Virus record (IMG/VR): IMGVR_UViG_3300032294_002237
Span: 1 to 32,790 of that record
DNA length: 32,790 nt
Source: a virus
Reading direction: 5' to 3' (one strand)
The position numbers and the translations under genes were made by a program. Positions within the stretch are counted from its first letter, which is position 1, and each line of letters begins with the position of its first letter. This document shows, piece by piece, positions 25,531 through 30,536 of this stretch. The notes beneath the pieces are model-generated. The model did no database searches and was not told where the DNA came from. It saw only the letters and a program-made list of their open reading frames with translations.

Positions 25531-27606
25531 ATGGCAGTCAAGACTAATGACAGTCTCTGCGAACTTAGGCACCAAATCGATAAGGCAGCACAAGCTTATT
25601 ATCGGTCGGATAGACCCCTGATCACCGACGCCCAATATGACCATCTGATCAGCCAATTACGCGAGCTGGCACCCGATGACTTCCGTCTGTCAAGAGTAGG
25701 TATTCCTTACGATCCTTCCGAACTCCGCAATAAAATCAAGCACCCCATCCCCATGGGGTCGCTTGACAATACTGACGATGGTATCGGTGGCTATGACAAG
25801 TGGCACGGCGACGTCGGGAACGTTCCGGTCTGTGCTTCACTTAAGGTTGATGGTAGCAGCATCCGGCTGCGTTACAAGAACGGTGTGTTGGTAGAGGCAG
25901 CCACTAGAGGTAACGGAGAGGTCGGAGAGTTGATCACTGCAAACGTGGTCAATTTCAAGAACGTGCCAACTGTCCTCCCCGAGCCTGTGAACATCGATGT
26001 TCGCGGAGAAGCTATCCTTTATCTGCAGGATTATCGAGATATTCGCTCTGCCAGTCAGGGCATGGATTTCGAGGCGATTCCGGACAAGGATAAGAGCAAC
26101 CCTCGAAATATTGGCAACGGCATCATCGGTCGCGATGACGGCACCGACACCGACAAGATGCGATTTCTTGCTTTTAATATAGAGGCCGAAGGCACCACGT
26201 TTGATGGTGAAATCACTAAGCTCGAGTATATCTCTAAATTGGGCTTTGATGTGGTGCCCCACCGCTTGGCCAAGACAGCAGCGGAATTGCGGGAATATTA
26301 TGAGCAGATCAATGCTGCCAGGAGCGAACTGCCATTCGAAATTGATGGAATCGTGGTGTGTGTTAACTCAATCGACGAGCAACGGTTGTATGTCACCGCC
26401 GATCCTAAGACACGCATGAGGCCCAAGTATGCTAGGGCTATTAAGTTCCCTCACAAGGCCAGCACCACCAAGATCGTAGACGTAGAAATCTCTATTGGTC
26501 ATTCCGGAGCTATCATTCCGACGGCTGTGCTGGAAGAAGTACGTGTCGGTGGTGTGAACGTGGTACATGCTCTATTGAATAATTGGGATGAGATTGATAG
26601 GTTGGGTGTATGCATCGGAGACCAAGTTGAAGTGGTCCTCGCAGGAGATATTATTCCCAAGATCACGCGGGTGGTAGACAGGGCAGCGAATCGAACCAAG
26701 ATTGTTGAACCCGCTAGGTGCCCAGCATGCGATGATAAGACCACCCGTATGCTTCGTGGTAAGCCGGGGGCAGTGACATATTGTGTGAATAAGCAGTGCC
26801 CAGGTGCTGCCTTGCAAAAGGTGAGTAAGTGGATTGGAGGCTCCAAGACTGGAGTCGGCATCCTCGGCATCGGCGATGCCATCTTGAAGGTATTGTGGGA
26901 CGAGGGTTTGGTCAAAGATCCTGCTGATCTTTATACTCTGACAGTGGATCAGATCACAGATCTGGAGATACCCAATAGTGATCGAGCAAAGGGTATCACT
27001 GGTATCAGGATTGGTGAGTCTCGCGCCCAGGAGATCATCACCAATATCAACAGCAAGAGGCAGCTTGGTCTGGACACCTTTTTGGGTAGTTTGGGTATCG
27101 AACTGCTCGGTAGGAGGCGTGTTAAGATCTTGCAGCAAGCCGCCAAGGGTCAACTGGACTCTTTGGAAGACTGGCTTGATGACCGCAAGTTGGCTAGCAT
27201 CCAGATTGAAGGGTTTGGGGCTACTATCCGCGAGTCTGTACGACTTGGCATTGATGAGAATCGAGCCTTGATCAGTAAATTGATCATGGTCGGAGTTAGT
27301 ATCGAAGCACCAAAGGGAGCATCTCAGATGGTATCAATAAAGGCTAGTAACGACAACCAGTTTGCTGGCGTTTCATTCTGCTTTACCGGAACCAGGGATG
27401 GTCTTGATGAGGTAGCTGCTCTTGGTGCTGTGATCAAGAGTGGGGTTTCCAAGTCCGGCCCTAGTCCTGATTACTTGGTTCAAAAGGATCCTCTGAGCAC
27501 TTCATCTAAGACTAAGAATGCGGAGGCTAATGGTCATACCAAGATTATTAGTATTGATTTTCTCAAGAAGTGTTTGAACGGTGAAGCGAAGCTCAAGGTT
27601 GAGTGA
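25531..27606 (+). CDS. ligA: NAD+-dependent DNA ligase LigA
   Basis: A complete 691-residue LigA. The Ia domain with AYYRSDRPLITDAQYDHL is at the N terminus. K105 in SLKVDGSS is the adenylated lysine, and FEIDGIVV matches a later nucleotidyltransferase motif. An OB fold, a four-cysteine zinc finger (C397, C400, C418, C423), helix-hairpin-helix repeats and a C-terminal BRCT domain (about 612-690) follow in the standard order. It seals nicks using NAD+. Codon choice is richer in G/C third positions than the replication genes, suggesting later acquisition. AGG lies nine bases before the ATG. Confidence 0.96.
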   Translation: MAVKTNDSLCELRHQIDKAAQAYYRSDRPLITDAQYDHLISQLRELAPDDFRLSRVGIPYDPSELRNKIKHPIPMGSLDNTDDGIGGYDKWHGDVGNVPVCASLKVDGSSIRLRYKNGVLVEAATRGNGEVGELITANVVNFKNVPTVLPEPVNIDVRGEAILYLQDYRDIRSASQGMDFEAIPDKDKSNPRNIGNGIIGRDDGTDTDKMRFLAFNIEAEGTTFDGEITKLEYISKLGFDVVPHRLAKTAAELREYYEQINAARSELPFEIDGIVVCVNSIDEQRLYVTADPKTRMRPKYARAIKFPHKASTTKIVDVEISIGHSGAIIPTAVLEEVRVGGVNVVHALLNNWDEIDRLGVCIGDQVEVVLAGDIIPKITRVVDRAANRTKIVEPARCPACDDKTTRMLRGKPGAVTYCVNKQCPGAALQKVSKWIGGSKTGVGILGIGDAILKVLWDEGLVKDPADLYTLTVDQITDLEIPNSDRAKGITGIRIGESRAQEIITNINSKRQLGLDTFLGSLGIELLGRRRVKILQQAAKGQLDSLEDWLDDRKLASIQIEGFGATIRESVRLGIDENRALISKLIMVGVSIEAPKGASQMVSIKASNDNQFAGVSFCFTGTRDGLDEVAALGAVIKSGVSKSGPSPDYLVQKDPLSTSSKTKNAEANGHTKIISIDFLKKCLNGEAKLKVE

Positions 27607-28603: not shown

Positions 28604-29236
28604 ATGGCTAACAATCGACCAGATATAGCCATAATCGGTAGTGCCTTCAGTGGCCAACCAGAGAATGCGGAACCATTGGATATATTGGCTGGCATATATC
28701 ATGTGGCATATAGTGTAGAGGTCGATGGCGTTAAAGGCATGGCCCTTCTCATATACGAGTTTGATGAACGGGATATTATACGCGAAGATGTGTACTCTAC
28801 GCCGCAGGTAGCACGACAGTTGGAAAAATATTTAGGCGGGCGGAGCCCAATTACTTATTCCTTGCTACCTTTACCGGACGATGGCCACGAAAACTCAAAT
28901 AGAGCAGCAGTAGCCAAAGCCAAAAAATCGTCCACAGTTAGGGTCTATGGGGAGAACACAATGAACGAGAGCGACGTTCAAGTGGTCGCCAATATGATAA
29001 CAGAAAACATAGACGATAATAATGGGATTGCTGAAATTAGCGAGCTGCTCGACATAGTTAAACAACTCAGCTTGAATCAGCAGCAGCAGCTGGTCGTCAA
29101 GCGGATTGAGATGGAACTGAATGCAAACGATGCCGAAGGTGAATGGGAATTGCATAATTGGATTCATCAAGCTGGAGCTGAACTCGAATATATAATTAAA
29201 GCTGCGTGGGGGATTACTGGCCGAGACAGAGGCTGA
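28604..29236 (+). CDS. Hypothetical protein
   Basis: A 210-residue protein with an N-terminal alpha/beta part (DIAIIGSAFSGQP, YSVEVDGVKGMALLIYEF) and a C-terminal helical, acidic part (NESDVQVVANMITENIDDNN, QLSLNQQQQLVVKRIEMEL). GGGGG lies about five bases before the ATG. No catalytic motif is recognised. It precedes the ADP-ribosyltransferase-like gene by two bases. Confidence 0.6.
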   Translation: MANNRPDIAIIGSAFSGQPENAEPLDILAGIYHVAYSVEVDGVKGMALLIYEFDERDIIREDVYSTPQVARQLEKYLGGRSPITYSLLPLPDDGHENSNRAAVAKAKKSSTVRVYGENTMNESDVQVVANMITENIDDNNGIAEISELLDIVKQLSLNQQQQLVVKRIEMELNANDAEGEWELHNWIHQAGAELEYIIKAAWGITGRDRG

Positions 29237-29238
29237 GG

Positions 29239-29682
29239 ATGCGGCTTAATCAGCTATGGTTAGAGTATAGGGGATATCATCAGGCACCAAATGCAGAAAA
29301 TGGTGCCCCATTATATGATTTAAAAACAATATATCCTGATGACATATATTCAGCTGATGGTGCAAGAATATACGGTACGCGGTGGTGGGGGAAATTGGAT
29401 GCAAAAGGAGAATCATATGATCAATTTGCTATAACCATATTGCGGTTAGCTCGAGGCGAACCAGAACGTCAGATAAAGGTGTACAGGGCTGTCCCGAAAT
29501 CATTACCATCAGATGTGCATATTAACCCAGGTGATTGGGTAACTATTACAAAGCAGTATGCAGAGTTGCACGGTGATTATGCTTTTAATGAACCATATCA
29601 AATATTAACCAAGACCGTAAGAGCTAAGGAACTATATACCGAGGGTAATAGCATACATGAATGGGGATACAATCCATCTTGA
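29239..29682 (+). CDS. ADP-ribosyltransferase-like protein of polyvalent-protein type
   Basis: The 147-residue protein carries IKVYRAVPKSL (R83), INPGDWVTITKQYAELHG (T102/T104) and GNSIHEWGYNP (E141), in the order of an R-S/T-E ADP-ribosyltransferase active site. The same string order (YRAVP, GDWVT, YA-HG, EWGY) occurs in a domain of large polyvalent proteins of mobile elements. The start at 29239 is chosen because AGAGGCTGAGG lies upstream; a GTG at 29206 in the same frame overlaps the previous gene. Such enzymes can modify host proteins or nucleic acids. The fold call is by motif and remains tentative. Confidence 0.55.
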   Translation: MRLNQLWLEYRGYHQAPNAENGAPLYDLKTIYPDDIYSADGARIYGTRWWGKLDAKGESYDQFAITILRLARGEPERQIKVYRAVPKSLPSDVHINPGDWVTITKQYAELHGDYAFNEPYQILTKTVRAKELYTEGNSIHEWGYNPS

Positions 29683-29723
29683 CGCTAGCACTTAAAATAG
29701 TCGATAAACGCAAACGAGATTAT

Positions 29724-30116: not shown

Positions 30117-30536
30117 ATGCGTTACTTGAATATGCTGGTACTCATGTCGATGGTATGTGTGACAGCCTATGCCGGAGAGTTTGAAGGTGATTGCTCCAGT
30201 GGGATGTGCAGCCTTGCCTCAAATAAGGCTCGCCCCGTGATCAATGTGGTTAAGGCACCTGTGAATGCCGTGATCAACGTGGCAAGGGTTCCGGTCGGGG
30301 CAGCCATCGATGTGGCTAGGGTCCCTGTTACTGCGGCAGTTGCAGTCGCAAAGGCACCAGTTGTGGTGGTCGATCGGTTGATTGACCGGCCACGGGAGCA
30401 CCAGAATAGTAACGCAGGGTGTGAATGCGTTGGTTGTGGCTGTGCTGCAGTAAGTACACAGAATGTCAGCTGTGGGCAGCCAGCGGTCAGCAACCGTTAT
30501 CGTAGGTCTAATGTTATCCTGCGGCGGTGCAAGTAG
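30117..30536 (+). CDS. Secreted Cys-rich protein with 11-residue repeats
   Basis: A signal peptide is visible (MRYLNMLVLMSMVCVTAYA, cleavage likely after AYA). The mature part contains four tandem 11-residue units of the style VINVxRxPVxA (about residues 42-86) with regular Val, Ala and Pro, then a Cys-rich tail with CECVGCGC. GGAGGTC lies about six bases before the ATG. Codons are G/C-richer than most neighbours. Small secreted repeat proteins of this kind are common in some planctomycetes; a host origin is a guess. In a phage it might act in the envelope or remain unexplained. Confidence 0.65.
   Translation: MRYLNMLVLMSMVCVTAYAGEFEGDCSSGMCSLASNKARPVINVVKAPVNAVINVARVPVGAAIDVARVPVTAAVAVAKAPVVVVDRLIDRPREHQNSNAGCECVGCGCAAVSTQNVSCGQPAVSNRYRRSNVILRRCK

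What the first reader, a model, noticed from the sequence alone, without database searches (positions are those of the whole stretch)
29239..29682. Stand-alone ADP-ribosyltransferase-like domain near a tRNA gene
The R-T-E order with YRAVP, GDWVT and HEWGYNP is a pattern mainly familiar to me from large polyvalent proteins of mobile elements; here it is a separate 147-residue gene, 251 bases before tRNA-Glu. It may target host translation or another phage factor.
Basis: partly seen in the sequence, partly recalled or inferred. Interest (0 to 1): 0.5.

Follow-up and report, generated by a model that had tools for sequence, protein, structure and literature searches.

The report
Unnamed phage ADP-ribosyltransferase-like protein family
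A small gene in an uncultured phage most likely makes an enzyme that uses the cofactor NAD to tag another molecule with ADP-ribose; it belongs to a large, so far unnamed phage family, found both as single genes and inside giant phage proteins, that public records leave unnamed or sometimes call a DNA-partition protein.

Summary
The 147-aa ORF at 29239-29682 is real: a syntenic contig (L001) has it at 91% aa identity, and 519 of 599 candidate stretches in viral contigs encode relatives. Pfam, NCBIfam, PADLOC and PDB sequence searches give nothing significant; PHROGs gives phrog_2579, 'ParB C-terminal domain'.

A confident AlphaFold2 model (pLDDT 90.9) looks like an ADP-ribosyltransferase (ART). 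All listed VIA-align entries with Z of 2 or more are ART-fold for it (27 of 27) and for a divergent relative (13 of 13), a few counted from recall. But Z is 5.2 or less, and Foldseek against PDB is not significant. Aligned end points mostly put the family's R and E on catalytic R and E of known ARTs. R83 is invariant, position 102 always S/T, E141 55 of 58.

The polyvalent link holds: 23 of 57 relatives lie in ORFs of 1000 aa or more; ART-PolyVal shares the ORF in 11 of 50 records. Stand-alone copies are not rare. A tRNA-Glu beside the gene was seen only in the two closest phages, so a translation target has no support. Verdict: an unnamed branch of a known kind; activity and target untested.

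The parts
29239..29682 (+). 147-aa ORF, predicted ADP-ribosyltransferase-fold protein (matches the last part of phrog_2579)
29206..29238 (+). possible in-frame upstream extension from a GTG codon (11 more residues); start codon not settled, the same extension is open in L001
29485..29487 (+). codon of R83 (YRAVP), invariant in 58 of 58; the end of an alignment puts it on Arg7 of cholera toxin A1
29542..29550 (+). codons of T102-I103-T104 (GDWVTIT), an S-T-S-like stretch at the end of strand 100-102; 102 is T or S in 58 of 58
29659..29661 (+). codon of E141 (HEWGYNP), E in 55 of 58 and Q in 3; aligned end points put it on the catalytic Glu of cholera toxin A1, Vis and C3

Best explanation
The gene makes a small stand-alone mono-ADP-ribosyltransferase of an R-[S/T]-E type, produced inside the infected cell. 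NAD+ would bind in the cleft of the split beta sheet: R83 on the first core strand holds the NAD phosphates and ribose, T102 at the end of the second strand orients the site, and E141 just before the last strand activates the nicotinamide ribose so that ADP-ribose passes to a host (or rival-element) macromolecule. The predicted fold and the conservation of these residues are shown by computation; NAD binding, catalysis, target and benefit to the phage are inferred. The residue two before the Glu is I, L, W, P or H in 57 of 58 members and not the E or Q of well-known Arg-, Asn- or Cys-modifying enzymes (that rule is recalled), so I expect a different acceptor. In other phages the same domain is a module of giant polyvalent-type proteins, in some beside an ART-PolyVal domain and in one fused to a portal protein; those copies are probably packaged and injected.
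For: Model mean pLDDT 90.9, pTM 0.85, with strands 78-86, 100-102, 120-128, 132-134, 142-144 and helix 105-115. VIA-align: 27 of 27 listed entries with Z of 2 or more are ART-fold (KptA/Tpt1, Vis, Arr, cholera toxin A1, C3, Plx2a, iota toxin, PARP14; two CNFy entries counted as ART-like from recall), best Z 5.2 over 75 residues at 3.0 A. A divergent relative (L101, pLDDT 89.8) gives 13 of 13 ART-fold entries (TreX/TreTu and CNFy counted from recall), best Z 4.5 over 71 residues at 3.0 A. Aligned end points fall on catalytic R and E of cholera toxin A1, SdeA and ExoS, and on catalytic E of Vis and C3. E residues of ExoS, CTA1 and SdeA are named in passages of PMC13367040, PMC4379533 and PMC5518988; ExoS R319 points into the NAD pocket; the other numbers are recalled. 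R83 58/58, S/T at 102 58/58, E141 55/58; R83 and E141 are invariant also in the 8-row A1, which has two Vibrio phage and one Mycobacterium phage rows from annotated records. Purifying selection, dN/dS 0.18. PF18760 ART-PolyVal lies in the same ORF in 11 of 50 records at E of 1e-3 or less, 5 of them over Pfam's cut-off; portal fusion in L064.
Against: No significant sequence similarity to a known ART: no Pfam or NCBIfam hit, only scattered weak Pfam matches among the 58 relatives, no PDB hit for the profile, hhalign against T4 ModA/ModB relatives P 0.04, probability 1.3% (the register does pair R83 with the hYR arginine of ModB), against KptA P 0.32. Foldseek against PDB has no match below E 0.26, and its top match is a phage portal. 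All Z values are under 8, which the tool says may reflect a common arrangement. The distances between the three side chains were not measured. Three of 58 members have Q instead of E. No partner gene, phenotype or target is known.
Confidence: 0.62

Rival explanations
1. ART-fold NAD+ glycohydrolase or phosphorylase: it breaks NAD+ down and lowers the cell's NAD or makes a signal, rather than tagging a macromolecule.
For: ART clades include NADases and NAD+-phosphorylases (section 27 of PMC9503650; RES passage); no E/Q two before the Glu in 57 of 58; ParT, recalled as a RES-family ART and titled a Prs ADP-ribosylating toxin, is among the fold matches of the relative.
Against: The phage itself encodes an NAD-dependent DNA ligase at 25531-27606, so depleting NAD would cost it; S/T and E are kept here, whereas RES replaces S and E.
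Confidence: 0.15
2. ART-like fold without catalysis, acting as a binding or adaptor domain.
For: Three of 58 members have Q at the Glu position; the fold match is weak.
Against: 55 of 58 keep E and all 58 keep R and S/T; R83 and E141 are invariant too in A1 with Vibrio and Mycobacterium phage rows.
Confidence: 0.1
3. ParB C-terminal (DNA partition or nuclease) protein, as some public annotation says.
For: phrog_2579 is called 'ParB C-terminal domain' and matches at E 3.8e-35; 58 of 58 A2 members match it; 13 of the 60 phage records listed bear a ParB-type name.
Against: The match covers only positions 340-462 of a 472-position profile, and all listed VIA-align entries are ART-fold. No Pfam model, ParB included, matches the window protein at E up to 1.
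Confidence: 0.03
4. RNA 2'-phosphotransferase of the KptA/Tpt1 kind (RNA repair).
For: KptA or Tpt1 entries have the best Z for both models (5.2, 75 residues, 3.0 A; 4.5, 71 residues, 3.0 A).
Against: The KptA family model PF01885 does not match the window, hhalign P 0.32, the alignments cover only the second half of KptA, and the pattern is R-S/T-E rather than H-H-h.
Confidence: 0.04

Closest known systems
phrog_2579 ('ParB C-terminal domain'), last third of the profile
   Same: Direct sequence homologue, E 3.8e-35 for the window protein; 58 of 58 A2 members match.
   Different: The family name points to ParB; the matched part has an ART-like predicted fold, and the window protein does not match the first 339 of 472 profile positions.
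ART-PolyVal (PF18760; ART of polyvalent proteins)
   Same: Also an ART module of polyvalent phage proteins; in the same ORF as this domain in 11 of 50 records.
   Different: Separate, non-overlapping match; the polyvalent ART family of PMC5512222 has an H-Y-D site (section 9; that PF18760 models that family is inferred from its name) versus R-S/T-E here; no PF18760 match to the window protein.
T4 ModA/ModB and Alt (R-S-E phage ARTs)
   Same: Same expected residue triad and phage setting; hYR and the V-x-S-F-S stretch of the Mod consensus look like YR and VTIT by eye.
   Different: No significant profile similarity (P 0.04); Mod proteins have E-x-E near the end, this family a hydrophobic residue at the first E. 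[quoted passage not shown]
R-S-E ARTs of known structure (cholera toxin A1, ExoS, SdeA mART, Vis, C3)
   Same: R and/or E in register at the ends of structural alignments.
   Different: Z only 2.0 to 3.8, 8-19% identity; no E/Q two before the catalytic Glu; one register conflict with Vis.

Membership tests
ADP-ribosyltransferase superfamily | ART fold (split beta sheet around an NAD cleft) | tested here: met
   All listed VIA-align entries are ART-fold for two models (27 of 27; 13 of 13; a few by recall), but Z is 5.2 or less and Foldseek against PDB is not significant.
ADP-ribosyltransferase superfamily | Significant sequence-profile match to a known ART family | tested here: not met
   No Pfam or NCBIfam hit, no PDB profile hit, hhalign P 0.04 and 0.32.
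R-S-E clade of ARTs | R on strand 1, S/T on strand 2, E at the last core strand, conserved | tested here: met
   R 58/58, S or T 58/58, E 55/58, at the expected secondary-structure elements; register at alignment ends agrees in 3 of 3 R and 5 of 5 E comparisons made, with one conflict noted for Vis.
R-S-E clade of ARTs | The three side chains meet in an NAD pocket | not testable with these tools
   Model coordinates were not in the Python box.
R-S-E clade of ARTs | NAD-dependent ADP-ribosylation | not testable with these tools
   Needs a bench assay.
R-S-E arginine/asparagine/cysteine-modifying subgroup | E or Q two residues before the catalytic Glu (ARTT motif; rule recalled) | tested here: not met
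   Position 139 in A2: I 37, L 12, W 4, P 3, H 1, one row not listed.
ART-PolyVal (PF18760) | Match to the Pfam model | tested here: not met
   0 Pfam families at E up to 1 for the window protein.
phrog_2579 | Match to the profile | tested here: met
   E 3.8e-35 over profile positions 340-462 of 472.
ParB | A ParB domain recognised in the window protein | tested here: not met
   No Pfam hit at E up to 1; the phrog match is confined to the last third of the profile.
KptA/Tpt1 | Match to PF01885 | tested here: not met
   0 matches in the window record.

The most novel reading that the evidence does not exclude
This is an undescribed, large clade of phage ARTs of R-[S/T]-E type that serves both as a stand-alone intracellular enzyme and as a module of injected polyvalent proteins, at times beside an ART-PolyVal domain. 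It lacks the acceptor-choosing E/Q of known clades, so it modifies a host or immune target by a chemistry not yet seen in phage ARTs, and it has been hidden behind 'hypothetical protein' and ParB labels.
Probability: 0.4. Interest if true: 0.66.

Novelty: new variant of a known kind. Interest (0 to 1): 0.47.

Why it matters
If right, a gene family matched in 150 Mycobacterium phage records and in hundreds of stretches of viral contigs gets a testable enzyme activity in place of no label or a misleading DNA-partition label. Most of the matching phage records name M. smegmatis mc2 155 as host, so loss of the gene can be tested in a standard laboratory system. It would also add an R-S-E-type ART to polyvalent proteins, where the 2017 survey describes H-Y-D ones.

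Tried and rejected
Sequence routes to known ARTs gave nothing significant: Pfam, NCBIfam, PADLOC, PDB sequences, hhalign to ModA/ModB (72, 75) and to KptA (75). The weak PDB hits (E 0.028 to 0.44: a conserved hypothetical protein, a helicase-like protein, a methyltransferase) were set aside as chance.

A link with translation through the tRNA: not supported. One search scanned 15 loci: L143 is the L001 phage again (tRNA-Glu); of the other 14, L162 has tRNA-Tyr about 1.25 kb away, L170 tRNAs from about 1.6 kb, and 12 have none in the stretch held, which is short on one side for several.

A toxin-antitoxin pair with the upstream 210-aa ORF: not supported. No family hit, it is 162 aa in L001, and the neighbours differ in the four annotated phages inspected.

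ART-PolyVal as the same family: rejected, because its matches lie beside and not on this domain. Several of the 11 co-occurrences rest on weak, partial matches (40-55 of 140 positions in G145, G150 and G152).

Papers: PMC5512222 passages and section 9; PMC9503650 passages and section 27; PMC13367040, PMC4379533 and PMC5518988 passages; all other papers only as search listings. I saw no paper that names this family; supplementary files could not be read, so the 2022 survey may include it there.

Rows dropped before A2: L094 and L100 (stops inside), L005 (C-terminal half only; its close copies L006-L008, with the split domain, went as redundant), other near-identical copies, and L009-L013. A4 has 40 rows. 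Searches used 50 of the fetched records, chosen by me. In the register test I used only rows whose catalytic residues I could name: CTA1, SdeA, ExoS, Vis and C3; R was tested only for the first three, whose alignment starts beside it. Vis was used only; the Vis rows disagree (Glu on 213). Plx2a, iota toxin (aligned to residues 11-182, its non-catalytic domain by recall), CNFy, Arr, PARP14, ParT, TreX/TreTu and KptA rows were not used.

Full report
Setting. The window is a whole virus record of 32,790 bases, possibly a fragment, host unknown. It carries, among others, an NAD-dependent DNA ligase at 25531-27606 (phrog_3869, E 5.1e-134). The gene in question lies at 29239-29682 on the + strand and encodes 147 residues. 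The frame is open back to a GTG at 29206, in L001 too, so the start is uncertain. The first ten residues of the model are its least confident block (mean pLDDT 62).

Is it a gene? Yes. A 178-kb viral contig (L001) encodes the protein at 91% identity over its whole length in the same neighbourhood, including a tRNA-Glu downstream. Between the two, dN is 0.039 and dS 0.219, dN/dS 0.18. The stretch 29175-29683 is 92.5% identical at the DNA level, while the other matching stretches are 68-87%, apart from one 34-base piece at 91%.

How widespread? With one motif pattern, 400 of 453 candidate stretches in viral contigs encode relatives (best 80 kept). In annotated phages, 173 of 50,697 records match: 150 Mycobacterium, 10 Vibrio, 6 Gordonia, 3 'Caudoviricetes', 2 'Bacteriophage', 2 Rhodococcus. 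Three of 72,556 plasmid records match, and 14 of 46 candidates in genome contigs. All 58 members of alignment A2 match phrog_2579, 'ParB C-terminal domain'; Pfam gives only scattered weak matches (best E 0.0044). Of 60 matching phage records listed, 13 bear a ParB-type name, one is 'acetyltransferase', and the others are hypothetical proteins.

Motifs. In A2 (58 rows) R83, N96, W100 and V101 are invariant, and Y10, H14, P17, P33, D35, Y45, P75, Y82, A84, P86, I95, G98, D99, Y107, A108, H111, V127, A129, E141 and G143 reach 90%. Position 102 is T or S in all; 104 is S or T in 38; 141 is E in 55 and Q in 3, the three being Sinomonas copies L102, L106 and L107. Position 139, two before the Glu, is I, L, W, P or H in 57 of 58.

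Fold. AlphaFold2 on A2 gives pLDDT 90.9 and pTM 0.85; R83 is in strand 78-86, T102 ends strand 100-102, E141 comes just before strand 142-144. Foldseek finds no significant PDB match; ExoS chains rank 3, 4, 8, 10 and 14 with E 1.5 to 3.2, and a portal protein is first at E 0.26. In the viral library 15 matches reach E of 1e-3 or less, among them proteins of Phabba (164 aa), Myrna (477 aa) and a 'Large polyvalent protein associated domain-containing' protein. VIA-align of 348 chains lists 27 entries with Z of 2 or more, all of the ART fold if CNFy is counted from recall, best Z 5.2 to KptA. A relative from a Bacilli MAG (L101, 32% identical to the window protein) was modelled from A4 (pLDDT 89.8); Foldseek again finds nothing significant, and 13 of 13 listed VIA-align entries are ART-fold, TreX/TreTu and CNFy counted from recall. 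The two alignments share rows, so these tests are not fully independent.

Register. The tool prints only the first and last aligned residues. Counting from the nearest end without gaps, R83 falls on R7 and E141 on E112 of cholera toxin A1. For the relative, its Arg falls on SdeA R766 and ExoS R319, and its Glu on SdeA E862 and ExoS E381. E141 also falls on Vis E191 and C3 E214. E110/E112 of CTA1, E860/E862 of SdeA and E379/E381 of ExoS are named as activity residues in passages read; R319 is said to point into the NAD pocket; the other numbers are recalled. So 3 of 3 Arg and 5 of 5 Glu comparisons made agree. Against this, the two Vis rows of the second model (rmsd 5.0 and 7.0 A) put the Glu on residue 213 by the same count, and rows whose catalytic residues I could not name were left out. 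This is the strongest hint that R83 and E141 are catalytic, but it assumes no gaps near the ends, and T102 could not be tested this way.

Architecture. Of 57 non-redundant relatives (stop-to-stop frames), 9 are complete and 200 aa or less, 22 are 201-999 aa, 23 are in frames of 1000 aa or more, and 3 are cut off. In 50 records searched for both domains, PF18760 (ART-PolyVal) lies in the same ORF in 11 at E of 1e-3 or less, 5 of them over the Pfam cut-off; in 10 of the 11 the nearest match lies within about 9-120 residues of this domain, in the other (L020) about 236. In the other 39 records it was not found in the same ORF. L064 has portal + ART-PolyVal + this domain. L022 has pyrophosphatase, GGDEF and acetyltransferase domains. 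Stand-alone genes sit in different places: between regA and the DNA polymerase gene in Vibrio phage VH7D, about 2 kb before the tail sheath gene in Phabba, about 3 kb from a recA-like gene in Wiggin. No conserved partner was seen in these.

Interpretation. I take the window protein as a mono-ADP-ribosyltransferase of R-[S/T]-E type acting in the infected cell; fold and conservation are shown by computation, the rest is inference. [quoted passage not shown] The 2022 survey lists N4-like, PART, ORF28, p0068-like, T4Alt/VIP2 and Mod as the most frequent viral ART families, and reports Alt/VIP2 ARTs fused to MuF head proteins (section 27 of PMC9503650). The ParB label rests on a profile of which only the last part is matched.

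What is ordinary: stand-alone copies are common, and the tRNA is a local neighbour. What is of note: a large, conserved, enzyme-like phage family without a fitting name, in phages that grow on laboratory hosts.

Noticed in passing
phage records, e.g. NC_022065.1 and MH399774.1: 13 of the 60 listed records with a relative are annotated 'ParB C-terminal domain', 'ParBc domain protein' or similar, probably label spread; most others are 'hypothetical protein'.
   Followed up: partly
L007:3747-5192 and L008: The domain is split by about 335 residues of other sequence between its YRAVP half and its INAGDWV half, so the loop after strand 1 tolerates a large insertion; shorter inserts occur in L002, L003, L013 and L029.
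   Followed up: no
L102, L106, L107 (Sinomonas): Glutamine replaces the otherwise conserved glutamate in these bacterial copies.
   Followed up: no
window 29175-29683 against L001: The ART gene is 92.5% identical in DNA to the related phage while the longer flanking matches are 68-87%, which could mean recent exchange of the gene.
   Followed up: partly
window 28604-29236: The upstream ORF ends two bases before the ART start codon; in L001 it is 162 instead of 210 residues.
   Followed up: partly
G120 (327-kb virus record of L029), 247454-250736: Four ART-PolyVal matches in separate frames in a row in one large phage, far from its copy of the present domain at 143629-144207.
   Followed up: no
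window 30117-30536: Small protein with a signal-like N terminus and repeats of the kind VINVxKxPVxAVINV; no family match.
   Followed up: no
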